Of a DNA stretch of 49,874 nucleotides, positions 19,475 to 34,065 are shown one piece after another. The notes under the pieces were generated by a model that did no database searches, was not told the DNA's origin, and saw only the letters and a list, made by a program, of their open reading frames with translations. The stretch is taken from the NCBI GenBank assembly GCA_012031875.1, contig JAAUSZ010000006.1:1-49874 (forward strand), read 5' to 3'. The first letter of the stretch is position 1. Each line of letters opens with the position of its first letter. The translations under genes and the position numbers were made by a program. This DNA comes from Desulfobacula sp. (lineage in GTDB: Bacteria > Desulfobacterota > Desulfobacteria > Desulfobacterales > Desulfobacteraceae).

Positions 19475-19499
19475 TTTCTTTAATTCCTCTTGCTATGGG

Positions 19500-19763
19500 T
19501 TATGAATAGCCGCCAGCCAATTGTCTGATATTGTCTTTTAATTGGTAAATCTGCCATCCGAGCCCGATGCAGTGCTTGTTTTCCATACAGACATCCGCAT
19601 CCTCAGGCTCAAGAAATGTTTTCAATTCCCGGTTGTCTTTTTTTAATAAAACAACCCAGGCTTTGTTGCTATGGTCAAAATCCACCTGGATATCGATACC
19701 GCATTTCCCGACATCCGGGTATAAGGATGATATTTTTTCGCATATTTGATTTTTCTGATACAT
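19500..19763 (-). CDS. Hypothetical protein of stress cluster (87 aa)
   Basis: An 87-residue soluble protein, ATG at 19763 with GGAGG 6 bases upstream. It has four Cys (residues 8, 21, 59, 65), an amphipathic C-terminal helix and no membrane segment. I do not recognise the family. It is the first gene of a leftward operon with the zinc-finger-like and UspA genes; the promoter candidate lies 45 bases upstream. Confidence 0.65.
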   Translation of the reverse strand: MYQKNQICEKISSLYPDVGKCGIDIQVDFDHSNKAWVVLLKKDNRELKTFLEPEDADVCMENKHCIGLGWQIYQLKDNIRQLAGGYS

Positions 19764-19806
19764 AAGACCTCCTTTTTATGGTTTCTGAACAGAGGTTATG
19801 AAGATA

Positions 19807-19834
19807 ATAATAGGGATTCTTTGCCCGTTGTAAA
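19807..19834 (-). promoter_or_regulatory. Promoter candidate for the stress operon
   Basis: On the - strand: -35 TTTACA (19834-19829), 16-base spacer, -10 TATTAT (19812-19807). The start would be near 19799, 36 bases before the ATG at 19763. It lies in the 90-base gap downstream of the lipoate ligase gene. Confidence 0.45.
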
Positions 19835-19852
19835 GGAGGTCCAGGGCCAGGG

Positions 19853-20490
19853 TCAAGACGGAAATTCTGTCCCCAGGGCCTTTCCAAGACACAGGGAAAG
19901 GCCCTGGGCCGTTATTCCGTGATAATAACAGCTCAAGTTTCTTACAAAATCATGATGGGCCCTCCCCTGCCTGTATTCCGGTTCCCTGGGGGGATACTCC
20001 AGATAATTCCCCATCATGTCGAGATCGGTTGAAACCAGGATTGAAGCCGAGAAATAGGCGAAATCTTTTGACCGCTTTAAACAGGAGCCTCCGATTTTAT
20101 GGTTGTCAACCACCAGATCCGAAATGCCGTCCGGATAGATTCCATCAATGCCGGCCCTGTTCAGCCCCTTGATGAGCCAGTGGGTGCACCGGGCAAACAG
20201 CGCTGGAATCCCTGAGATCCCCACGGCTGGAAAGGCGGTTGAAACAATCAGGGAACCCTTGTCCAGAAAAACCGTGCACCCGCCTCCCCGGCGTCTGTAA
20301 ACCGGGATTTCATCCTTAAGAATTTTTTCAAGCCGGGTTTCCCGGGACAGGGAACTTCCCCTACCGGCCACAATGGCAGGATAGGGAAACGGGTAACAGG
20401 AAAATTGAGGGCTTTTCTTTAGCAATGCAGATTCAATTAATGCATCATCCAGGTGAAGGGCGGGATTGTCAGGTCAGGCGGCTCCGGCAT
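19853..20490 (-). CDS. Lipoate-protein ligase A family enzyme (frameshift in sequence)
   Basis: Member of the LplA/LipB/BirA-like fold that attaches lipoate (or octanoate) to E2 and GcvH lysines. After correction it is 212 residues. The lipoate-binding signature RRRGGGCTVFLD is present near residue 70, and the catalytic-Lys region reads DLVVDNHKIGGSCLKR. The N-terminus PPLHLDDALIESALL is restored by adding one C to the coding-strand CCC (+ strand GGG 20458-20460). The ATG at 20490 overlaps the last base of the dihydrolipoamide dehydrogenase stop (TAATG). Its place at the end of the pyruvate dehydrogenase operon makes E2 of that complex the likely substrate. Confidence 0.82.
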
Positions 20491-21902
20491 TATTTCTTTC
20501 CTTTAAGCAGGTGAACAGAGCCCCCGGCAGCCATCTCCGCAGCCTCCATAATGGATTCCGAAAAAGTGGGATGGGGATGGATGCTGACTATCAAATCTTC
20601 AAGGCAGGCTCCCATTTCAATGGCCAGGGTGCCCTCCGATATCAGTTCCGACGCATTTTCCCCCCACCATCCCCACACCCAGGATCAGGGAGGTCTCCTT
20701 TTGGGCGATGACCTTTACAAAACCGTCGGTCTTTCCGGTACTTTGGGCGCGTCCAAGGGCTGTCAGGGGAAACCGGCCCACTGTAAAGGGAATATTCCGG
20801 TCCCGGGCCTGTTTTTCCGTGAGGCCGGTCCAGGCGATTTCCGGATGGGTAAACAATACGGCCGGGACAGCCACATTATCAAAAGCGGAAGGCCTGCCGG
20901 CAATCACCTCTGCCGCCACCCTGCCTTCCCTGGCGGCTTTATGGGCAAGCGCCGGTCCCCGGGTGACATCCCCCACGGCAAAAATATGGCGGATTTCGGT
21001 CCTGCATTGCTCATCCGTCGGGATGAGTCCTTTGTCATCCATTTTTATCCCGATATTTTCAAGTCCGAGATCATCGGTATTGGGACGTCGCCCCGTGGCC
21101 ATCAGAACCTGGTCATAGGTTTCTTTCATCCGTTCTCCATTTTTTCAAACGCCACTGCGTATCCTTTTTCTGTGGCATCCATGTGAAGCACCTTGGACCG
21201 GGTATGAAGGGCGGAAAACCGTTTCTGACAGTTTTGGACCACTATCCTGACAAGATCCCTGTCTGCCCCCTGCAAGAGATCTTCATTGAATTCAACCATT
21301 GACACCCGGCTTCCGAGACCTGCATAGGCCTGACCGATCTCAAGTCCGATATAACCGCCGCCCACCACCAGGAGGCTCCCTGGAATTTCAGGCAGGGACA
21401 GGGCTTCGGCGGAAGTCCACAGGGGAAGGCCAATGCCGGCCGGAAGGGTGTTGATTCTAGACCCGGTGGCAATAACGGCATGTTTGAACCGGATATTGGT
21501 ATTCGCGCCCTCAATATAGATCTTATGCTCCTCGGTAAACCGTCCGCGGCCCTGGATGATTTCTATGTTCCGGTTTTCAAGGAGCTTTGAAATCCCGCCT
21601 GAAAGGGAATCCACCACTGAATTGATCCAGGTTCGAAGGCGGTGGATATCAAACTCAACCCCCGTATATGTTAGCCCAAAAGTGCCGGCCTGTTTCAAGG
21701 ACTCGGCCAGACCCACCGCATGGATCAAGGTTTTCGACGGGATACACCCTTCCGTAAGGCAAACTCCGCCTAAACGGGAACGGGGCTCAACCAGCATCAC
21801 CTCAAACCCCAGGTCGGCCGCACGGATTGCCGCCGTATACCCGCCGGGGCCGCCGCCCAGAACAACCACTTCCGTGTCATAAACAAGTTCTCCGACTACC
21901 AT
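20490..21902 (-). CDS. lpdA: Dihydrolipoamide dehydrogenase, E3 (two frameshifts in sequence)
   Basis: FAD/NAD disulfide oxidoreductase of 470 residues that reoxidises lipoamide of E2. Motifs: GGGPGGYTAA (FAD), the redox GGVCLTEGCIPSK (here the pair is Cys-x4-Cys), ATGSR, the NAD loop GGGYIGLEIG, FAVGDVTRGPALAHKA, and the C-terminal HPHPTFSESIMEAA with the catalytic His-Glu pair. The frame breaks at + strand T run 21140-21145 (one A missing on the coding strand) and C run 20660-20665 (one G too many). Start ATG 21902 follows GGAGAGGG. Confidence 0.93.
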
Positions 21903-21951
21903 GCCGCCCTCTCCTTTTTTTCTCAATGGATGGCCTTCCATCCTGGAGGCC

Positions 21952-23199
21952 CTAAACCCGGGTCATAAAAACCATGGGAGTCTCCATCATCTGCTTCAGA
22001 TCCCGCATGAAATAAGCTGCCCCGGCGCCGTCGGCCACCCGGTGATCAAAGCACAGGGTCACGGGGAGCATTGTCCTTATCACGACGGCATCATCCTTTA
22101 CCATGGGTTTGGGGCCAACCCTTCCCATGCCCAGGATGGCGGATTCCGGATAATTGATAATGGGGAAAACCCCTGTGCCGCCGATGGCCCCGACATTGGT
22201 GACCGTAAAGGTTGATCCGGTCAGCTCTTCAGCCGTGAGGGTGCCGTCCCGGCCTTTCCCGGCAAGGGAACGGATTTCTGTTGCAATCTGTGTCACGCTT
22301 TTGGCGTCAGCCTGCCTGATAACCGGAACGATCAATCCCTTTGGGGTATCTGCGGCAATTCCGATATGGTAATATTTTTTATGAATTATCTCCATTTTAC
22401 GCGGATCAACGCTTGCATTAAATTGAGGATATTGTTTTAAAAGAGAGGCAAGGGCCTTGACGATAAATGACAGCAGGGTGATCCGGTCGGATTCGTTCTT
22501 TTCCCGGTTTAATGATTTGCGCAAGGCTTCAAGCTCCGTCACATCCCACTCTTCCATATGGGCCACATGGGGAATCAGAATCATGGAGGAGGTCGTTTTA
22601 ACCGCCACTTTTTTTCTCAGAGAGCGCATGGGTATTTTTTCAACAGGCCCTTCTTCGGCATAGTCCGGCAGGGCGGGTATTTCCAGAAAGGGAATTCCGG
22701 AATGGATCTCTTCCGGGACTGCAATATCCGGGTCAGCCGTCCCGGCATCTTTTAGATCACCCTTGCCCGGCTCTCCTGCCGCCAATTGAACATCCTCCGG
22801 CGTCACCTTTCCTGCTGACCCTGTTCCGGTGACGGTGGTGATATCAATCCCCATCTCCCGGGCCAGACGCCTTGTGGCCGGAGCTGCCGCCACCTGTTTT
22901 TTCATTTCCTGATCCTGAACCTTTGCGTCATCCGTTTGCCCGGATGTTTCAGATGAATTTTCCCCGCTGACCTCAATGACCGCCAGAACCTGACCTACCC
23001 GGATCATATCCCCGGGGTTTCCATTCAGCTTCATAATTGTCCCGGTCCTGGGTGACGGGAGGGTCACAGTGGCCTTGTCCGTCTCCATATCACAGAGCGG
23101 GTCGTCTTCCCGGATGAAATCCTTTTCTTTGACATACCATTTGAGCAGCTCTCCCTCGTGTATCCCTTCACCCAGATCCGGAAGCTTAAATTCAAACAT
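21952..23199 (-). CDS. pdhC: Dihydrolipoamide acyltransferase, pyruvate dehydrogenase E2
   Basis: A 415-residue E2. A single N-terminal lipoyl domain carries the lipoyl-Lys in METDKATV (about residue 43). A flexible linker follows, then a peripheral-subunit binding domain (ATRRLAREMGIDITTVTGTG, near residues 107-130), a Pro/Glu linker, and the catalytic acyltransferase domain with the active His and Asp in FDHRVADGAGA. It sits between E1-beta and E3 in one operon, which fixes the pathway; acetyl transfer to CoA is the expected reaction. AGGAGG precedes the ATG. Confidence 0.93.
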   Translation of the reverse strand: MFEFKLPDLGEGIHEGELLKWYVKEKDFIREDDPLCDMETDKATVTLPSPRTGTIMKLNGNPGDMIRVGQVLAVIEVSGENSSETSGQTDDAKVQDQEMKKQVAAAPATRRLAREMGIDITTVTGTGSAGKVTPEDVQLAAGEPGKGDLKDAGTADPDIAVPEEIHSGIPFLEIPALPDYAEEGPVEKIPMRSLRKKVAVKTTSSMILIPHVAHMEEWDVTELEALRKSLNREKNESDRITLLSFIVKALASLLKQYPQFNASVDPRKMEIIHKKYYHIGIAADTPKGLIVPVIRQADAKSVTQIATEIRSLAGKGRDGTLTAEELTGSTFTVTNVGAIGGTGVFPIINYPESAILGMGRVGPKPMVKDDAVVIRTMLPVTLCFDHRVADGAGAAYFMRDLKQMMETPMVFMTRV

Positions 23200-23208
23200 A
23201 ATGACCTC

Positions 23209-24188
23209 CTAGTCGTTCAGCGTTTGTATCATCGCTCTAAAAATTCTGTCCTGGGAGGGGAAATACATCTGCTCCCTTCCAAACAGCGGAACCGGGAGGT
23301 CATACATGGTGACCCGGTTGACCGGGGCCTTGAGGTACATCAGGGCATGATCATTGATCAGGGCAATGATTTCAGAAGCCGGTCCAAAGGATTTCTGGGC
23401 TTCCTGGACAATAACACACCGCCCGGTTTTGGTAACGCTGTGGACAATGGTTTCGACATCCATGGGGGACAGGGTCAGAAGATCGATCACTTCCGGGCGG
23501 CGCCGGTTTCCGCCTTCAGCTTTTTCACGGCTTTTAACGTATCCTGCATCATGGCCCCCCATGAAATCACGGTCAGATCTTCACCGGTTTTCAGGACCCG
23601 GGCCCTGCCGATGGGAATGGGGGGCAATTCGTCTTCCACCTCTTCCTTGAAAGACCGGTAGGACCGCTTGGGCTCCATGAAAACCACGGGATCAGGGTCG
23701 TCAATGGCTGCCTTTAGGAGTGCGCCCGCATTTGAAGGGCTGGACGGAATCACCACTTTGACACCCGCGGTATGGGCAAAATACACTTCCTTGCTTTCCG
23801 AATGGTGTTCCAATGCCCTGACCCCGCCGCCATAGGGCATCCGGATCACAAGGGGAACGGTAAACCGGCCCCTTGACCGCGTTCTCATCCTTGAGGCATT
23901 GCCTTCAAGCTGGTGCATCATCAGATAGGAAAAACCGGAAAACTGCATTTCAATCACGGGCTTGAGTCCTGACATCGCCATGCCGATGGCGGTTCCGAGA
24001 ATGGCGGATTCCGCTATGGGAGTGTCGATGACCCGCTGCCGGCCGAATTTTTGATACAGGCCGTCCGTAACCCGGAAAACCCCTCCGTTGAGACCCACGT
24101 CCTCACCCATGACCAGCACTTTCTCATCAGCCGTCATGATGTGGTGAAGCGTCCGGTTCAGAGACTGGACCATATTGATTTTATCCAT
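23209..24188 (-). CDS. pdhB: Pyruvate dehydrogenase E1 beta subunit (frameshift in sequence)
   Basis: A 326-residue ThDP-dependent E1-beta. Conserved features are VLVMGEDVG with the ThDP-activating Glu, GVFRVTDGL, FGRQRVIDTPIAE, the GGGVRALEHHSES stretch, and the C-terminal transketolase domain (EVIDLLTLSPMDVETI, then RCVIVQEA). The frame breaks near + strand 23493-23494; one added C/G restores AREVIDL. The start ATG overlaps the E1-alpha stop by 8 bases. Confidence 0.92.
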
Positions 24189-25272
24189 TTTCAGCCTCCT
24201 TTTTCAAATTCTCCAGAAATTGTGCCCGCTGTTGCTCAATCAGGTAAAAGGAATTACCAAAAACATGATCAAAAGGAGCGTCCGGTTTAAATTCCCTTTT
24301 GGATTCAAACTCTTTCACCGCTTGATCAATGGTCTCTTTGAGCTTGTCCTCAAGATCTTTTTGCTTTTTTTCATCCCAGATCTGTTTTTGGATCAGGTAT
24401 TTTTCAAACCGGACCAGGGGGTCACGGGCTTTCCAGGATTCAACCTGTGCCTCTTCCCTGTACCGGGTCGGATCATCTGCCGTTGTATGCATCAGCATCC
24501 GGTAGGTCACCGCTTCAATCAAAGAGGGCCCTTTGTCTTCCCGGGCTCTTTTAACGGCATCGCCCACTGCTTTGAAAACCGCCAGGGGGTCATTCCCGTC
24601 CACCTGGATCCCGGGTATACCATAGGCGATGGCCTTTTGTGCAATGGTGGCGGACCGGGTCTGGAGTTCCCGGGGCGTTGAAATGGCATATTGATTGTTC
24701 TGGCACAAAAAAATCACAGGGGCATTAAGGACGCCGGCAAAATTCAAGGCCTCATGAAAATCGCCTTCGGAAGTCGCCCCGTCCCCGAAAACCGCCAATG
24801 CAACCGTATCCTTTTCCCCCTGGAGGCGGGACCCATAGGCCAGGCCCACGGCCTGAGGCAGTTGGGATGCCAGGATAATTGAGACGGGAAGGGTCCGGGG
24901 GCTTTCAGGATTAAAACTTCCCTCTTCAAACCCATTATAAAAATGAAGCACGTTGATAAGCGGTTCCCCCCTCATCAAACGGCCCCCCAATTCACGATAG
25001 GACCCCACAAACCAGTCGGTATCCCGGATGGCCAGAACCGGCGCACAAAAAGAGGCTTCCTGGCCGGTGGCGGCCGGCAGGGTTCCGAGCCGGCCCTGTC
25101 GCTGAAGGTTCAGCATCCTTGCATCCGCCATCCTCGAAAGCGTCATATAATAATGGAGCCTCAGAAGGTCCTCCCGGCTCAGATCCGGCTCCAGGGCCCT
25201 ATCAACATTGCCGTTTTCATCAAGTATCTGCAGATAATCGATACTGAAATTGTCTAAAGTCTGTAATGCCAT
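24181..25272 (-). CDS. pdhA: Pyruvate dehydrogenase E1 alpha subunit
   Basis: A 363-residue ThDP-dependent E1-alpha with E1-beta completing the active site. The ThDP-binding stretch FGDGATSEGDFHEALN ... QNNQYAIS is intact, and the phosphorylation-loop equivalent TADDPTRYR follows. Overall similarity is to the Gram-positive-type PdhA rather than the branched-chain enzyme; substrate assignment to pyruvate is therefore likely, not proven. ATG 25272 was chosen because AAAGGAGCGAGGG lies before it. It is the first enzyme gene of a pdhABC-lpd-lipoate-ligase operon read leftwards. Confidence 0.9.
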   Translation of the reverse strand: MALQTLDNFSIDYLQILDENGNVDRALEPDLSREDLLRLHYYMTLSRMADARMLNLQRQGRLGTLPAATGQEASFCAPVLAIRDTDWFVGSYRELGGRLMRGEPLINVLHFYNGFEEGSFNPESPRTLPVSIILASQLPQAVGLAYGSRLQGEKDTVALAVFGDGATSEGDFHEALNFAGVLNAPVIFLCQNNQYAISTPRELQTRSATIAQKAIAYGIPGIQVDGNDPLAVFKAVGDAVKRAREDKGPSLIEAVTYRMLMHTTADDPTRYREEAQVESWKARDPLVRFEKYLIQKQIWDEKKQKDLEDKLKETIDQAVKEFESKREFKPDAPFDHVFGNSFYLIEQQRAQFLENLKKEAENG

Positions 25273-25331
25273 AACCCTCGCTCCTTTACCTTCATTCAGC
25301 CGCCTGCCTGAGGGTCGCTTTTTCCAGCCCG

Positions 25332-25568
25332 TCAATGCATAGCGTTATAATATACCTTTTCAAAGAATGTATCGGTTCTCTCATCAAAAACCGCTTCATG
25401 TTCATGAATTAATTTGGAACACCCGTCGGCCCAGCCGCCACATGCCGGAACAACACTGTCTCCGAGGCTGAACTTTCTATTACAGGCCGCACATCCGGAG
25501 GCATTGTTTAGATTTAAAAGTTCAAGGTCCATTATCAATTGATTCTTATGGCGCTTTTTAAATATCAT
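25332..25568 (-). CDS. Small Cys-rich protein upstream of pyruvate dehydrogenase genes (78 aa)
   Basis: A 78-residue protein with four Cys in a CAAC and a ...CGGW...C arrangement (residues 26-50), resembling a zinc knuckle, followed by an HEHE segment and an aromatic C-terminus. The ATG at 25568 has a very good GGGAGGGG site. It ends 60 bases upstream of pdhA and is probably in the same transcript. I do not recognise its family. A metal- or redox-sensing role next to an oxidation-sensitive complex is only a guess. Confidence 0.65.
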   Translation of the reverse strand: MIFKKRHKNQLIMDLELLNLNNASGCAACNRKFSLGDSVVPACGGWADGCSKLIHEHEAVFDERTDTFFEKVYYNAMH

Positions 25569-25911: not shown

Positions 25912-27492
25912 TTACAGGGTCGGCCCCATAATTTTGCTGTAAACGGCTTTGCCGTCACCCGGTTCGTAAAAATCATCCAGAACCACATCGCAGCGGTACC
26001 CGCACCCTTCGTAAAAACTACGGGTAGATGCATATCTTATCTGGGTGGAGGTTTCCACATAGGCTCTTTTTCCCCCGGCTTCAGAAATCAGGCCTTCCAT
26101 TTCCGTCAGAATGCTTTTCCCAAGTCCTTTGCCTTGAAATTCCGGAGAAACGGCAACCCAGTAAATATCATAGCTTGTCAAGGTGCAGGGAATGGGGCCG
26201 TAGCATCCATATCCGACCACCCGGCCGTTTTTTGAGGCTATGACAAAATAGTAGCCGCTCCCGGCCGGACCTTTTTCCAAATGCTCCTGAACCAGTTCTT
26301 CGGCAATCTCAATTTCGTCCGGCCTGAAAAATCCGGTGGCTTCCACAAGAGCCCGGATCTGTTCCGCATCCTTCGGGACAGCCTCATACCGGATGCTCAC
26401 TGCCTGATGAGGATCAACAGAGTGCATGTATCCGGTATTTTTCACAACGGATTGACCCATGTCCTGATTCCCTGCCAGGGCTACCGGTTGACCCTGCCGG
26501 ATTAAAATCTGTTCAACGGCTTGGGAATAAAAAATCCCTGCCCGGTCAAGGGCTGCCGCAAACCCGGCATCCGGTGAAATGCAGGGATTGGCATTGACTT
26601 CCAGTATAAAAGGCCGGCCCTTCTGATCCACCCGGAAATCCACCCTGGCATATCCTCTCAGGCCAAAACTTTGCCAGCACCGGAGAGCAAGGGCCTCAAG
26701 GGTTGACAATAAATTCCGGTCAACGGCTGAAAACTCAAAGCACCGGGGCGTATTGTGATATTCAGCCGAATCCGGCATCCATTTTGCCCGGTAGCCGACT
26801 ATCCTGGGTGTATCTGCCTCAAATCCCCGGAATAAAATTTCCGCCGGGGGAAGGACCCTGGCCCCGTCTGTTGTATCCAGGATCGAAAGATTGAATTCCC
26901 GGCCCTCTATAAAGGCTTCGGCAAAACAGGCGCCGCCCATTTCCGGTTTGCAGCCGGATAAAAGCCCATGGATGTCTTTAGCTGCGCCATGAACCAGGTT
27001 TTCTTTTTCCAGCCCCAAAGAGGCGTGCTCCCAGAGGGATTTGATGATCCATACCCTTTTGTGCGGGTCCTCAAGACGGGTTGCCCCTGACCAGGGCATG
27101 TCTCCGGGAACCGGATTGATCCAGTCCGGGGTCGGCAGGCCTGCCGCCCTCATCCTTTCCTTAGCCATCACTTTATGCGAGGTTGCTAAAATGGCTTCGG
27201 CCGGACACCCGGTATAGGGAATGCCCAGGGCATCCAGAAGTGACGGGACAAGATGAATCAATCGCCCATGGCCGGCCAGGGATTCAACCAGATTAAAGGC
27301 AGCAAGGGGATCAAGGGCAATCAGTCCTGACTTCAGACTTTCAAGGTCAAGGTCACAGGGCAAGGGTTCCGGTATATACCCCAGATTCATAAGAGCCTTG
27401 GATACGGCTTCAACCTGGATCAGGACATCCTCTTCATCGGGCAGGCTGCCGCCTTTCACAGCGTTGTGAACGAGTGCAATGGTCCGGTTCAC
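25912..27492 (-). CDS. ATP-grasp ligase (D-Ala-D-Ala ligase-like) fused to GNAT acetyltransferase
   Basis: A 526-residue fusion. Residues 1-345 are an ATP-grasp ligase of the D-alanine-D-alanine ligase fold, with KVMAKERMRAAGLPTP, ACFAEAFIEGREFNLSI and the metal-binding EVNANPCISPDAG. Residues 370-525 are a GNAT acetyltransferase with the acetyl-CoA pyrophosphate loop VSPEFQGKGLGKSIL. Ligase plus N-acetyltransferase in one chain suggests formation of an amide or peptide bond followed (or preceded) by N-acetylation. It overlaps the second ATP-grasp gene by 4 bases (ATGA), and the KamA gene is upstream in the same operon. The ligase's amino-acid specificity cannot be read here, but the Ser-x-x-Gly loop of cell-wall Ddl is not obvious, so peptidoglycan use is unlikely. 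Confidence 0.85.
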   Translation of the reverse strand: MNRTIALVHNAVKGGSLPDEEDVLIQVEAVSKALMNLGYIPEPLPCDLDLESLKSGLIALDPLAAFNLVESLAGHGRLIHLVPSLLDALGIPYTGCPAEAILATSHKVMAKERMRAAGLPTPDWINPVPGDMPWSGATRLEDPHKRVWIIKSLWEHASLGLEKENLVHGAAKDIHGLLSGCKPEMGGACFAEAFIEGREFNLSILDTTDGARVLPPAEILFRGFEADTPRIVGYRAKWMPDSAEYHNTPRCFEFSAVDRNLLSTLEALALRCWQSFGLRGYARVDFRVDQKGRPFILEVNANPCISPDAGFAAALDRAGIFYSQAVEQILIRQGQPVALAGNQDMGQSVVKNTGYMHSVDPHQAVSIRYEAVPKDAEQIRALVEATGFFRPDEIEIAEELVQEHLEKGPAGSGYYFVIASKNGRVVGYGCYGPIPCTLTSYDIYWVAVSPEFQGKGLGKSILTEMEGLISEAGGKRAYVETSTQIRYASTRSFYEGCGYRCDVVLDDFYEPGDGKAVYSKIMGPTL

Positions 27493-28487
27493 GATGGCCC
27501 ACAGCTTGGAATCCGCTTTGCCGCAGACTCCAGAATCATTTCAATAAGTCGGACATAAGATGTCCCGAAAAATCCGCAAAGCATTGGCAAATCAGAATAT
27601 TCCGGCCGGAGTCCGGCCAGGGGGTTTACTTCGATAAATCCGGGCCTGCCCCGACGATTGCAACGGATGTCGATACGGCCGCCATCCCGGCAGCCCAGAA
27701 CGGTCCAGGATTTTAGGGCCAGGGTTTCCACTTCCTGGATCAGGGGATCTTTTTCAGGACTGACCGGCCGGTATTCCACCCGACCCTCCCAGCCTTCTTT
27801 ATTTTTAAGAGAATAAACTTCTTTTTCCGCCCGGTCCAGGAGCAGGATTTCCATGGCGCCGATAACTCTTGCTTCTTTACCCGTCCCTGCAAGCCCAACG
27901 GTAAATTCTCTTCCCGGCAAAAATTCTTCAATCAGAACCGGCTGTTGAAATTGTTCAAGAAGATCCCGGCAGGCATCCTTAAGCTCCCCGCGGGACCTCA
28001 CCACGGATTTGGCCGTGATCCCCATGCCCGTTCCCTCAGCCACGGGTTTGACAAAAAACGGGGGCTCGAATCGGGCAAAGTCTGCATCCTCAACAGAATG
28101 GGCCACCACAAAATCCGCAGTGACCAGTCCTGCATCGCGGACAATCTGTTTGGTCATGCCCTTGTGGAGGCAAAGGCTCATCACAAGGGGGTCTGAAAAG
28201 GTATAGGGGATTTCATATAAATCCAGAATGGCCGGCACCTGGGCTTCCCTTCCAACCCCATGAAGGCCTTCTGCAATATTAAAGACCAGGTCCCAGCGGT
28301 CCCCTTTCACAAGACGTTCGGCGAGCCTGCGGCCGTTGCCGATGCGAACCGTCTCATGTCCCAGAGTTAAAAGCGCCCCTTCCAGGCCCTCAATGGTTTC
28401 GACGGTGTCGAATTCCGCTGTCTCAAGTTCGCTATAGCCCATGTCCAGGTAATCTTGGCGCAGGTCATAGGTCAGTCCTATTATCAT
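27489..28487 (-). CDS. D-alanine-D-alanine ligase-like ATP-grasp enzyme
   Basis: A 332-residue ATP-grasp ligase. Visible motifs are FNIAEGLHGVGREAQVPA (N-terminal substrate domain), IPYTFSDPL, the ATP-binding FFVKPVAEGTGMGI, VLIEEFLPGREFTVG and the metal site RIDIR...FIEVNPLAGL. It resembles the putative D-Ala-D-Ala ligases that sit outside cell-wall clusters. The start ATG 28487 has an AGAAAGATAAT-type weak ribosome-binding context. It lies 51 bases after kamA and overlaps the fused ligase/GNAT gene, so the three are expected to act in one pathway. Confidence 0.85.
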   Translation of the reverse strand: MIIGLTYDLRQDYLDMGYSELETAEFDTVETIEGLEGALLTLGHETVRIGNGRRLAERLVKGDRWDLVFNIAEGLHGVGREAQVPAILDLYEIPYTFSDPLVMSLCLHKGMTKQIVRDAGLVTADFVVAHSVEDADFARFEPPFFVKPVAEGTGMGITAKSVVRSRGELKDACRDLLEQFQQPVLIEEFLPGREFTVGLAGTGKEARVIGAMEILLLDRAEKEVYSLKNKEGWEGRVEYRPVSPEKDPLIQEVETLALKSWTVLGCRDGGRIDIRCNRRGRPGFIEVNPLAGLRPEYSDLPMLCGFFGTSYVRLIEMILESAAKRIPSCGPS

Positions 28488-28530
28488 TATCTTTCTCCTT
28501 CTCCTGGTAAAAAGATTTGCATCCCTTTTG

Positions 28531-28549
28531 GTGCGTTCTCAGAACGCAC
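28531..28549. repeat. Inverted repeat at the KamA stop codon
   Basis: GTGCGTTCT-C-AGAACGCAC, a perfect 9-bp palindrome around one base, covering the kamA stop codon (28539-28541). It may form a small hairpin that tunes read-through into the ATP-grasp genes, or be an operator. No T tract follows on the - strand. Confidence 0.4.
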
Positions 28550-29858
28550 AGTCCCCGGGAAGAGGATCAGGATATCGATAACTTTTGTTTTCATAATTGG
28601 TAAGAATCATCTCTTCAGCCGTATGCCCCTGGACATAATCCGGCATTAAGGGAATTTTCCCTCCGCCGCCGGGGGCATCCACAACATAGGTGGGAACGGC
28701 ATAGCCGGTTGTAACTCCCCGGAGGCCGCGAATGATGTCAAGCCCCTTTTCAATGGAAGTCCTGAAGTGTCCCGACCCTGTTATGGGATCACACTGGTAA
28801 AGATAATAGGGTCTGACCCTCATTTTCATCAGTCCCTGCATCAGGGATTTCATGGTATCCACGGAGTCGTTGATATTCCTCAGAAGAACCGTCTGGGATC
28901 CCAGGGGAATACCGGCATCGGCAAGCATCGCACAGGCTTTGGCGGTTTCTGGGGTACATTCATCCGGATGGACAAAATGAAGGCTCATCCAGAGGGGATG
29001 ATACCGCCTGAGCATTTTAACCAGCCTAGGGGTAATCCTCTGGGGCAAAACCGCCGGCACCTTGGTGCCGATACGGATAATCTCCACATGGGGGATCCGC
29101 CGCAGTCTGGACAATATCCATTCCAAGCGGTCGTCGCTCAGGGTCAGAGGATCGCCTCCCGACAAGAGGACATCCCTGACCATCGGAGTTCTTGCGATAT
29201 AATCAATGGCTTTTTCCCACCTTGTTCGTCCGGCATGAATATTTCCGTGTCCCACCACCCTTGACCGGGTGCAATACCGGCAATAGGTGGAGCAAAAATC
29301 TAAAAGCAGGAATAAAACCCTGTCCGGATAGCGATGGACAAGGCCGGGCACCGGACTCTGATGTTCCTCGCCCAGGGGATCATCGGATTCACAGGGCATT
29401 TTAACCCATTCGTTGACGTTGGGAACCACGGATCTGCGCAGGGGTTGACCAGGATCATCGGCCGAGACAAGGCTGAGGTAATAGGGTGTAATGCTCAGTG
29501 GAAGCTGGGTCCCGCTGTTGACCAGTGTTTCATCAGGCGATAAGGACAAAATCCGGCTCAGTTTTTCATAGGTCCGGATGCGGTTGCTGACCTGCCATTG
29601 CCAATCGTTCCATTCTTTGTCTGCGACCAAAGGATAGAAATTACGCCGAAACGATTTCGTTCTCGAACTGGTTCTGGGGCTGCGCCGACTGATCTGAATC
29701 TTTGCGGCCTGGATAAGATTCGTGTTTTTAAAAATGATCGGGTAGGAAACGGCTGTTGAAGCCGGGGGGTGGGTTATTGCAGCACGCCTGCTACTGGGAG
29801 GCTCATCATCTTCCAGTGTAAGCGCTGTTGCCATGGGTGAGTATTGTCCCTCTTGCAT
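28539..29858 (-). CDS. KamA-family radical SAM aminomutase (lysine 2,3-aminomutase-like)
   Basis: A 439-residue radical SAM/PLP enzyme of the lysine 2,3-aminomutase family (L-lysine to L-beta-lysine). The [4Fe-4S] cysteines are C189, C193 and C196 (CSTYCRYC). Other family sites are all visible: HRYPDR with the carboxylate-binding Arg180, LSGGDPL, YLYQCD with Asp357, and VVDAPGGGGK with Asp394 and the PLP Lys401. The two Asp that hold the lysine side-chain amine in characterised enzymes are kept, so lysine is the best guess for substrate. An unusual 70-residue Ser/Arg/Pro-rich N-terminal extension precedes the family start, and the C-terminal Cys-rich tail of the clostridial enzyme is missing. 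AAGGAG precedes the ATG. It is first in an operon with two ATP-grasp ligases. Confidence 0.88.
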   Translation of the reverse strand: MQEGQYSPMATALTLEDDEPPSSRRAAITHPPASTAVSYPIIFKNTNLIQAAKIQISRRSPRTSSRTKSFRRNFYPLVADKEWNDWQWQVSNRIRTYEKLSRILSLSPDETLVNSGTQLPLSITPYYLSLVSADDPGQPLRRSVVPNVNEWVKMPCESDDPLGEEHQSPVPGLVHRYPDRVLFLLLDFCSTYCRYCTRSRVVGHGNIHAGRTRWEKAIDYIARTPMVRDVLLSGGDPLTLSDDRLEWILSRLRRIPHVEIIRIGTKVPAVLPQRITPRLVKMLRRYHPLWMSLHFVHPDECTPETAKACAMLADAGIPLGSQTVLLRNINDSVDTMKSLMQGLMKMRVRPYYLYQCDPITGSGHFRTSIEKGLDIIRGLRGVTTGYAVPTYVVDAPGGGGKIPLMPDYVQGHTAEEMILTNYENKSYRYPDPLPGDCAF

Positions 29859-32218: not shown

Positions 32219-32517
32219 GGCGTATTCCCCTTATTATCCGGTTTATCTTTAAACATCAGCTCATCTTCTTCGATCATGTCATGTTCATGCTTTGCAAGAT
32301 GTTTCAGGTATTCCATATCTGTTTTTAAGGCATTGATTTCGTTCTCAAGTTCCTGATTTTCAGATTCAACCAGGTGGATTTGGTCCAGAGCGCGTTGTTC
32401 TTTATCCATGATGGCCCTGTAATCAAAAATGCCGTTTTCGGAAAAGGCTATCAGACCTAAAAGGACGGCGATAAAAAATATGGTCAAATATAGACTTGCC
32501 TTCTCAACCGTGGTCAT
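32215..32517 (-). CDS. FtsB/DivIC-like septum formation initiator
   Basis: A 100-residue protein with the FtsB layout: short cytoplasmic N-terminus, one transmembrane helix (about residues 8-27) and an extracytoplasmic coiled coil (EQRALDQIHLVESENQELENEI) before an acidic tail. FtsB joins FtsL and FtsQ in the divisome. Sequence conservation in this family is low, so the call rests on topology and on its location after murJ. It overlaps the murJ stop (shared ATGACCACGGTTGA). Confidence 0.7.
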   Translation of the reverse strand: MTTVEKASLYLTIFFIAVLLGLIAFSENGIFDYRAIMDKEQRALDQIHLVESENQELENEINALKTDMEYLKHLAKHEHDMIEEDELMFKDKPDNKGNTP

Positions 32518-34047
32518 GATGTCTTTTTTTTATTCCCCTTTTTATGAATTCCAATTCAGGATTGGATATCATCCGGTTGATGCCAAGGTATAAAACCATG
32601 CCAAGGCCGATGCAGCCGGTAACCCCTATCGCGTATCCAAGTCTTGATGACAACAGCGGCAAAATCAGGTCTGCCGCATGCCGGACAAGGAAAAACATTA
32701 TAACAGATACAAAAAAAGTTCTGCAAGCGGAAACAATGATCTCGTTTTTCCTGATGTCCATTGTCCCTGGAATATTCATGAATAAAAAACAAAGCCTGCA
32801 ACGGCAGATATGGACACAGACAGGATAAGCCCCTTCAAGCCTAGGGGTGCCGATGCCAAACAGCCGATCAGGTTCAGGCCCATGGTAATCATTCCGGAAT
32901 AAAAGGGAATGGCTGTATTCATCAGAGAATAATACAGCGTTGCAAACAATCTCATCCCGGTAAAAGCCCAGAGCCCCAGGGCAAGAAAAAAAAGACAATC
33001 CGCCGTCTTTTCAACCGCCTCAACACCAAAGGCGCCATGGCCGAATAAGATTTTAACAATGGGTTCATCAAGGGCCATGAGCCCGGCCATGGCCGGGATG
33101 GTGACAAAGAACACCAGCTTTACCCCTCTTGAAAAAAGTTCCCCGACCTCATCCATCCGGCCGTACAAAGCCTTTTTTGATATTTCCGGCAATAGAACCG
33201 TTGCAAGGGAACCGGCAAAAAGGGCCATCGGAAATTGAACCAGCCGGTCAGCGTAATACACAAACGTCACGCTGCCCTCATCAAGCCCGGAGGTGAAAAA
33301 TGAGGCCACCATGATATTGATCTGATAGGAGGCGGCACCGATCATGGAGGGAATCATAATTTTTGCAACCCTTACCAGGCCGGGGTGAAAAATACGAAAA
33401 AAAGAAATTTTCAGCATGCCAAGCCGTATCATCAATGGTATCTGAATGGCCAACTGAAGTATTCCACCGGCGGTTACCCCTATGGACAACCCGATTGCCG
33501 GGACATTAAACCGGCTGGAGATAAAAAGCGTAAATATGATGACGACCAGATTAAAAACAAGGGGGGCCATGGCCGGAACCCCGAATTTTCCAAAAGAATT
33601 CAGCACCCCCATGCAAAGTGCGGTGATCAGAATAAAAAAACCATAGGGCAGCATGATTTTCAGCAATATCAACGTCAGTCCGTACTCGTACGAGTGATGG
33701 ATGAACCCGGGAGCAATGACCTTCATGAATAGAGGCCCAAAAAAGACTCCCGATAAAACAATGAGAATCCCGATCACTGAAAAAAAGAAAAAAAAAGAAA
33801 AAAACAATGCCGAGGCCTGGGGACGCCCCTCTTTTTCAAGGGTTTCGGAAAAAACAGGAATAAAGGATATGCTGAATATCCCCTCGGAAAAAAGCTTCCG
33901 GGAAAGATCAAAGGGACGAAAGGCAATAAAAAAGGCATCACTTTGGAATGATGCCCCCAAACAGACGGCAATCAGGGAATCTCTCACAAGGCCGAGGATG
34001 CGGCTTCCAAAAGTGAACAGGCTTATCAAGGCAGTCTTTTTCAGCAT
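32504..34047 (-). CDS. murJ: Lipid II flippase MurJ (frameshift in sequence)
   Basis: A 514-residue MOP-superfamily membrane protein with about 14 predicted helices that moves the peptidoglycan precursor lipid II across the inner membrane. Visible family marks are the N-terminal SLFTFGSRILGLVRD, then GPLFMKVIAPGF, the central NLVVIIFTL helix and the ADRLVQFPMALFAGSLATVLLP segment. The frame breaks at A run 32784-32789; one added base joins the C-terminal helix (FVFLFMNIPG). ATG 34047 was preferred because it gives the family N-terminus; GTG 34056 is an alternative. Its 3' end overlaps the FtsB-like gene. Confidence 0.92.
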
Positions 34048-34065
34048 TCTGCCCACAAGTTTTTC

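What the first reader, a model, noticed from the sequence alone, without database searches (positions are those of the whole stretch)
25912..29858. KamA + ATP-grasp + ATP-grasp/GNAT cassette: possible acetylated beta-lysine peptide pathway
A lysine 2,3-aminomutase-like enzyme keeping the lysine-specific residues (Arg180, Asp357, Asp394, PLP Lys401) is in one operon with two D-Ala-D-Ala-ligase-like ATP-grasp enzymes, one fused to a GNAT acetyltransferase, with a 51-base gap and a 4-base overlap. Known archaeal and bacterial osmolyte synthesis uses KamA plus a GNAT enzyme to make N-epsilon-acetyl-beta-lysine. The two extra ligases suggest a larger product such as an acetylated beta-lysyl dipeptide or amide. 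That product is not known to me, and the fusion ties ligation to acetylation. This is the best candidate for an undescribed system here.
Basis: partly seen in the sequence, partly recalled or inferred. Interest (0 to 1): 0.78.

Follow-up and report, generated by a model that had tools for sequence, protein, structure and literature searches.

The report
Acetylated beta-lysine amide synthesis cassette
A small, self-contained set of enzymes found in many anaerobic and aquatic bacteria seems to turn lysine into beta-lysine, join it to other building blocks and cap it with acetyl groups, making a small molecule that nobody appears to have identified yet.

Summary
In detail: KamA, an ATP-grasp ligase and an ATP-grasp/GNAT fusion form a tight unit with intact active-site residues. 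It belongs to a widespread module. In the phylum sample (297 genomes) 108 match the third protein; of 99 of the other 107 examined, 75 have KamA with both ligases. Relatives occur in Planctomycetota, Acidobacteriota, Myxococcota and Bacteroidota. The order is KamA-ATPg1-ATPg2-(deacetylase)-GNAT. The optional deacetylase (49 of 181 loci) is of acetylpolyamine-amidohydrolase type. The window probably lost it: its 'fusion' sits at a 1.7-kb gap against its closest kin. KamA lies outside the AblA clade; the GNAT is not AblB. In 14 of the 99 genomes pyruvoyl arginine decarboxylase (11 with agmatinase) stands beside the ligases instead; never both. Beta-lysine and putrescine are both 1,4-diamines, so I infer that the ligases use a 1,4-diamine unit and that the cassette makes an N-acetylated beta-lysine amide. 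KamA's N-terminal tail carries an apparently unreported [DE][DE]EPP[SG] motif (104 of 136 tails; 3.7 expected; pattern chosen after seeing tails). No reaction, product or role is shown; an osmolyte like NAGGN or N-acetyl-beta-lysine is possible.

The parts
28539..29858 (-). KamA-family radical SAM lysine 2,3-aminomutase-like enzyme (P0001, 439 aa), with a ~70-aa unalignable N-terminal tail
29796..29810 (-). DDEPP core of the recurrent linear motif [DE][DE]EPP[SG] in the N-terminal tail of KamA
27489..28487 (-). ATPg1: D-Ala-D-Ala-ligase-fold ATP-grasp amide ligase (P0002, 332 aa)
26488..27492 (-). ATPg2: second Ddl-fold ATP-grasp ligase domain (P0003 residues 1-335)
26407..26487 (-). Low-confidence linker of P0003 (residues 336-362, pLDDT under 50). 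It lies at the site where L052 has 1812 bases, most of a GNAT-deacetylase frame, against 102 bases here (26400-26501)
25915..26406 (-). GNAT acetyltransferase domain (P0003 residues 363-526), close to PDB 2r7h (Dde_3044)

Best explanation
The cassette is a self-contained pathway for an N-acetylated amide of beta-lysine. Step 1 (inferred from residues and homology): KamA turns L-lysine into beta-lysine (3,6-diaminohexanoate), moving the amine so that the two amines have the 1,4 spacing of putrescine. Steps 2 and 3 (reaction type inferred from fold; substrates unknown): ATPg1 and ATPg2 each activate a carboxylate with ATP and form an amide bond, giving a short beta-lysine-containing peptide or amide. 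Step 4 (inferred): the GNAT acetylates a free amine. In some relatives an acetylpolyamine-amidohydrolase-type domain could remove the acetyl group, making the pool adjustable or recyclable; the window lineage seems to have lost it. The product probably stays in the cell as a stress or compatible solute or an amine-type stabiliser. KamA's EPP-motif tail may dock another protein, perhaps a cassette partner.
For: Order KamA-ATPg1-ATPg2-(deacetylase)-GNAT across several phyla. Lysine-type residues kept in 147-149 of 150 loci, the rest unaligned. Both ligases have the Ddl fold and keep catalytic-type residues across relatives. GNAT has a solved relative, 2r7h. The deacetylase domain (49 of 181 loci; 13 of 99 genomes of the phylum sample) is PF00850 and closest to acetylpolyamine amidohydrolases 6phr, 9gkz, 3q9b. 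KamA (75) or pyruvoyl arginine decarboxylase (14) accompanies the ligases, never both, in 99 other genomes; the decarboxylase, agmatinase and DHS-family names hold by Pfam on L049, the first two also over NCBIfam cut-offs. E25 and D27 of ATPg1 are invariant in 16 sequences from both contexts. One KamA cassette has its GNAT in frame with an agmatinase-family domain over the cut-off. AblB is in only 9 of 297 genomes, two of which also carry this cassette. The commonest flanking gene family is in 8 of 101 loci, so no shared exporter.
Against: No substrate or product has been measured. Homology does not fix what the ligases join, nor whether beta-lysine gives the amine or the carboxylate. Ten of 99 genomes show neither KamA nor the decarboxylase in the stretch; three of those stretches end at a contig end on the side where it would lie (L045, L166, L196). 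Nine loci with order ATPg1-KamA-ATPg2 and 8 of the 14 decarboxylase loci show no GNAT in the stretch, so acetylation is not universal. The deacetylase is in a minority of loci. Carrying the KamA type is unrelated to having nspC or speE (42 of 76 against 105 of 221, p 0.29), so it does not behave as a polyamine replacement. No salt-linked RNA element: Rfam scan of the window empty.
Confidence: 0.55

Rival explanations
1. It is simply a bacterial version of the N-epsilon-acetyl-beta-lysine osmolyte pathway (AblA plus an acetyltransferase); the ligases are incidental or act elsewhere.
For: KamA is closest to AblA among NCBIfam models and a GNAT is present.
Against: GNAT gives no AblB hit. KamA is below the AblA cut-off (479 against 525 bits) and none of 45 cassette KamAs falls in the AblA clade. 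Two genomes carry both AblB and the cassette. All 75 KamA-type genomes of the phylum sample have both ligases in the stretch (the sample was drawn by a ligase/GNAT match, so this is partly by construction for ATPg2).
Confidence: 0.1
2. The product is a secreted metabolite such as a metallophore or antibiotic with a beta-lysine part, as in streptothricin-type compounds.
For: Beta-lysine occurs in secreted antibiotics (established knowledge); the cassette spreads across phyla.
Against: No commonly shared neighbour: the largest shared flanking family is in 8 of 101 loci, transporter-like ones in at most 5.
Confidence: 0.07
3. The ligases and GNAT modify a protein, perhaps the tail of KamA itself at the EPP motif, as a peptide tag; the small molecule is only a donor.
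For: Acidic EPP motif in 104 of 136 tails; EF-P beta-lysylation is a known use of beta-lysine on a protein.
Against: The motif offers only Glu/Asp side chains for amide formation; it is absent in 12 of 12 cassette KamAs with other gene orders and in 25 of 130 with KamA first. KamA is well below the EpmB cut-off.
Confidence: 0.07
4. The ligases make a cell-wall precursor with beta-lysine or D-Ala (true D-Ala-D-Ala-type ligases).
For: Nearest structures for both are Ddl enzymes.
Against: Scores far under the Ddl cut-offs (144 and 94 against 243 bits). The residue aligned to the Leu of the Ddl HSLVP motif is Asp299 in all 18 ATPg1 rows of A3, though not in the two KamA-last loci L144 and L147. 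No neighbour family is shared by more than 8 of 101 loci.
Confidence: 0.06

Closest known systems
ablA-ablB pathway to N-epsilon-acetyl-beta-lysine (methanogens, some bacteria)
   Same: Lysine 2,3-aminomutase-like enzyme with the same key residues, plus a GNAT acetyltransferase.
   Different: KamA is outside the AblA clade and has an extra tail; the GNAT is not AblB; there are two ATP-grasp ligases and sometimes a deacetylase.
NAGGN pathway (Ngg and AsnO; N-acetylglutaminylglutamine amide)
   Same: Ngg both acetylates and forms a peptide bond, giving an acetylated dipeptide osmolyte (PMC8070244, passages only).
   Different: No KamA or second ligase is described there; P0003 does not match the NAGGN synthetase model (accession TIGR03103 recalled); no asparagine synthase was seen beside it here.
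D-alanine--D-alanine ligase (Ddl) family
   Same: Fold and several catalytic-type positions.
   Different: Far below the family cut-offs; ATPg1 has invariant E25 and D27 near the N-terminus and, in most KamA-type rows, Asp in place of the Leu of HSLVP.
Acetylpolyamine amidohydrolases (in relatives, not in the window)
   Same: PF00850 domain whose best PDB matches are APAHs.
   Different: Flanked by GNAT-like domains and placed in a KamA-ligase cassette.
PDB 2r7h, putative D-alanine N-acetyltransferase / GNAT Dde_3044
   Same: 0.7 A over 159 residues and 45% identity to the GNAT domain.
   Different: Function untested as far as I saw; I did not see its gene neighbourhood (searches did not find its genome).

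Membership tests
AblA lysine 2,3-aminomutase | Score over the NCBIfam TIGR03820 cut-off (525.4 bits) | tested here: not met
   P0001 479.3 bits; 5 of 6 other cassette KamAs also below, one at 526.8. All seven match only to model position 358-361 of 417; most of the six were given without their full tails
AblA lysine 2,3-aminomutase | Carboxylate-, amine- and PLP-binding residues of lysine 2,3-aminomutase (R, D, D, K) | tested here: met
   R180, D357, D394, K401; roles of the residues recalled
AblA lysine 2,3-aminomutase | Grouping with AblA encoded beside AblB | tested here: not met
   Tree of 53 rows: 8 KamAs beside AblB on one side of a 100/100 branch, none of 45 hand-picked cassette rows among them
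AblB beta-lysine N-acetyltransferase | Match to TIGR03827 (GNAT_ablB) | tested here: not met
   No hit at E 0.001 for P0003 or for 4 other cassette GNATs; own genome best 22.3 bits elsewhere, cut-off 205.1
NAGGN synthetase (Ngg) | Match to the NCBIfam model of N-acetylglutaminylglutamine synthetase | tested here: not met
   Not among the 21 families hit by P0003; that the library holds the model (TIGR03103) is recalled
NAGGN pathway | Asparagine synthase-type AsnO beside it | tested here: inconclusive
   None seen by eye among the ORFs, and no neighbour family is shared by more than 8 of 101 loci; no profile search for AsnO was run
D-alanine--D-alanine ligase | Ddl fold | tested here: met
D-alanine--D-alanine ligase | Score over the family cut-off | tested here: not met
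   P0002 144 and P0003 93.7 bits against 243 (NF002378)
D-alanine--D-alanine ligase | Activity with D-alanine | not testable with these tools
   Needs assay
EF-P beta-lysylation (EpmB) | Score over the TIGR03821 cut-off (369.3) | tested here: not met
   P0001 246.8 bits
Acetylpolyamine amidohydrolase (relatives' domain) | PF00850 domain most similar to APAH structures | tested here: met
   Pfam on the L045 protein, PDB on the L042 protein; the domain is absent from the window cassette

The most novel reading that the evidence does not exclude
The cassette defines an undescribed class of metabolites, acetylated amides of 1,4-diamine units. The same ligase pair is fed with beta-lysine from lysine (KamA) in some lineages and with agmatine/putrescine from arginine (PvlArgDC, mostly with agmatinase) in others. 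This would parallel, in small-molecule form, the way EF-P beta-lysine stands in for eIF5A hypusine. KamA's EPP tail would hold the enzymes together.
Probability: 0.3. Interest if true: 0.78.

Novelty: new variant of a known kind. Interest (0 to 1): 0.62.

Why it matters
In the phylum sample about a quarter of genomes (76 of 297, a lower bound) carry KamA with this ligase pair, and relatives occur in several other phyla, yet its product is unknown as far as the searched library shows. If right, it adds a widespread beta-amino-acid metabolite to the chemistry of anaerobic sediments and waters, gives a function to PDB 2r7h and to many genes now named D-Ala ligase, and explains why two different diamine sources serve one ligase pair. 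It gives a directly testable metabolite question.

Tried and rejected
Polyamine replacement: rejected for the KamA type, since carriers have nspC or speE about as often as others; the window genome has speE and shows no nspC (genome 87% complete). Decarboxylase-type genomes have neither in 14 of 14, against 147 of 283 others with one (p 9e-5, no correction for kinship). Only these two polyamine genes were tested; nspC was taken at E 1e-20 (75 genomes), speE over its cut-off (72).

Plain AblA-AblB pathway: rejected as above. Riboswitch control: Rfam scan of the window at gathering threshold gave nothing; other loci were not scanned. Plasmid carriage: no match for P0002 in the plasmid collection at E 1e-30. 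Conserved flanking genes: none beyond 8 of 101 loci. Promoter and terminator scan: near shuffle level.

Deacetylase elsewhere in the own genome: one PF00850 gene on contig C179, not in a cassette, beside an EpmA-like gene (the EpmA name is by eye).

First KamA tree held a wrong row for L225 (a second, weaker KamA-like hit) and very long own-genome paralogs; it was rebuilt without them. The AblA rows come from 8 of the 9 AblB loci; in L217 no KamA hit was seen. The Asp299 argument rests on a sequence-profile alignment and a recalled role of the Leu in Ddl, and two KamA-last loci (L144, L147) lack the Asp. The EPP pattern was written after I had looked at the tails, so its expected value is optimistic; KamA_b-type tails have it in 2 of 9. 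The DHS-like matches are strong in two of the 14 decarboxylase loci (L049, L150) and weak (21-23% identity) in five. In L186 the decarboxylase match is partial (47 bits). The 181 loci include some records fetched twice from two collections (L124 and L168 match in ORF content, L118 and L204 in contig length), so counts are of loci, not independent genomes. Iyer et al. 2009 on ATP-grasp amidoligases (recalled, PubMed id tried) is not held; it may mention such operons, so novelty is only as far as the searched library shows. The genome of PDB 2r7h was sought and not found.

The recount agreed; the deacetylase turned out a minority feature and the Asp299 statement was narrowed.
Full report
OBSERVATION. 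The three ORFs are present and intact at the stated places: KamA 28539-29858, ATPg1 27489-28487, ATPg2-GNAT 25912-27492, all on the minus strand, with a 51-base gap and a 4-base overlap. Pfam and NCBIfam give LAM_C/Radical SAM, Ddl-type ATP-grasp, and Ddl-type ATP-grasp plus GNAT.

THE MODULE IS WIDESPREAD AND ORDERED. In a drawn sample of 297 genomes of the phylum, 108 match P0003 at E 1e-20, the window genome included. I fetched stretches from 99 of the 107 others and mapped them (recount). KamA and both ligases share the stretch in 75 of 99; pyruvoyl arginine decarboxylase accompanies the ligases in 14 of 99; neither is seen in 10 of 99 (L045, L139, L149, L156, L166, L171, L178, L188, L196, L205). 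None has both. Eight matching genomes were not examined. These include Planctomycetota, Acidobacteriota, Myxococcota, Bacteroidota and Krumholzibacteria by record title or by the tree's taxonomy labels; most are metagenome-assembled genomes. Over 181 loci including the window, the commonest architectures are KamA-ATPg1-ATPg2-GNAT (64), the same with an HDAC-type domain fused to GNAT (24), KamA-ATPg1-ATPg2=GNAT (14, the window among them) and with separate HDAC and GNAT (11). In all, 49 of 181 loci show the HDAC-type domain and 17 show ATPg2=GNAT; of the 99 genomes 13 show the HDAC-type domain. Some records occur twice in the 181.

THE FUSION IS PROBABLY DERIVED. The closest relative, L052 (Desulfobacula sp.), aligns with the window at 83.7% DNA identity over the 10 kb that ends at the junction and at 89.3% over the 475 bases after it. 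Between window 26502 and 26399 it has 1812 bases where the window has 102; those bases hold most of a 755-codon GNAT-HDAC-GNAT frame. L053 also lacks the deacetylase, but there the two parts are in different reading frames. Other near relatives (L054, L055, Desulfotignum) have it. So a loss of the deacetylase, not a new design, most simply explains the fusion. The AlphaFold model shows two confident domains with a 27-residue low-confidence linker at that place.

WHAT THE DEACETYLASE ADDS. It is PF00850 and its best PDB matches are acetylpolyamine amidohydrolases. An acetyltransferase and an acetyl-amine hydrolase in one cassette, often one chain, suggest an acetyl group put on and taken off a small amine, in those lineages that have it.

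NOT ABLA-ABLB. KamA scores 479.3 bits against the AblA cut-off of 525.4, and five of six others tested are also below it. In a 53-row tree the eight KamAs encoded beside AblB form one side of a 100/100 branch without any of 45 cassette rows, which were a hand-picked spread. The GNAT has no AblB hit. AblB itself is found in 9 of 297 genomes; two of them, G178 and G280, also carry the cassette.

THE 1,4-DIAMINE IDEA. KamA and an arginine-decarboxylase set replace each other beside the same ligase pair. In L049 the neighbours are PvlArgDC and agmatinase over the NCBIfam cut-offs and a deoxyhypusine-synthase-family protein over the Pfam cut-off. Agmatinase-like matches are in 11 of the 14 decarboxylase loci, DHS-like in 7 (5 of them weak), a GNAT in 6. 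From chemistry, the amines of beta-lysine lie on C3 and C6, the spacing of putrescine. E25 and D27 of ATPg1 are invariant in 16 sequences from both contexts. One KamA cassette has its GNAT in frame with an agmatinase-family domain (L124, L168), and in L211 arginase-family and S-adenosylmethionine-decarboxylase genes lie about 4 kb downstream. I infer a shared 1,4-diamine unit. Against a plain polyamine role, the KamA type is unrelated to nspC or speE.

A LINEAR MOTIF IN KAMA. The tail before the catalytic core does not align, yet 104 of 136 distinct tails hold [DE].?EPP or [DE][DE].PP, against 3.7 expected from residue shuffles. The pattern was written after seeing tails. By gene order it is 105 of 130 where KamA is first, 0 of 9 for ATPg1-KamA-ATPg2 and 0 of 3 where KamA is last; 0 of 8 AblA upstream stretches hold it, three of these being cut short by the end of the locus. 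In the window it reads EDDEPPSS. A docking role is inference.

PRINT. Ten searches of the held library listed no paper that title, abstract start or passages showed to be on such a cassette; the lists were cut. I read passages only of PMC9337991, PMC3543383, PMC2922099, PMC11641026, PMC1224877 and PMC8070244. The Pelobacter genome paper proposes AblA-AblB there; the Na+ riboswitch paper links ablA to sodium control; the NAGGN paper describes Ngg as both acetylating and ligating.

VERDICT. A real, conserved, apparently uncharacterised biosynthetic cassette, best read as acetylated beta-lysine amide synthesis. Steps shown: gene content, order, co-conservation, residues, predicted folds, the missing deacetylase, the motif. 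Steps inferred: every reaction, the product, its role.

Noticed in passing
L049, L137, L138, L142, L143, L145, L150, L183, L184, L186, L189-L191, L194: Related ATP-grasp pair (with a GNAT in 6 of 14) beside pyruvoyl arginine decarboxylase, mostly with agmatinase-like and sometimes DHS-family genes, in genomes without an nspC or over-cut-off speE match: an apparently separate polyamine-linked version of the ligase module.
   Followed up: partly
window 29796-29810 and KamA tails of related loci: Short linear motif [DE][DE]EPP[SG] in an otherwise unalignable KamA tail; eight tails have more than one copy.
   Followed up: partly
window 20617-21941, 23209-24188, 32504-34056: Neighbouring genes that look like dihydrolipoamide dehydrogenase, an E1-beta subunit and MurJ (by eye) are each split over two frames; the MurJ-like gene is one 536-codon frame in L052 and L053, so assembly errors or recent frameshifts are likely here.
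   Followed up: no
window 19489-25336 against L052 12809-12900: The 2-oxoacid-dehydrogenase-like gene group downstream of the cassette is absent at this place in L052, whose alignment jumps from window 25337 to 19488.
   Followed up: no
window 25332-25568, minus strand: Small ORF of 78 residues with several cysteines (CAAC) between the cassette and the 2-oxoacid dehydrogenase-like genes; no Pfam match.
   Followed up: partly
L124 12274-13116 and L168 9721-10563: GNAT in frame with an agmatinase-family domain at the end of a KamA cassette.
   Followed up: partly
L156, L171: ATPg2 and GNAT without KamA or ATPg1 in the stretch, next to a queuine tRNA-ribosyltransferase gene (Pfam for L156; by eye for L171), in two genomes of one family: a reduced form of the module.
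   Followed up: partly
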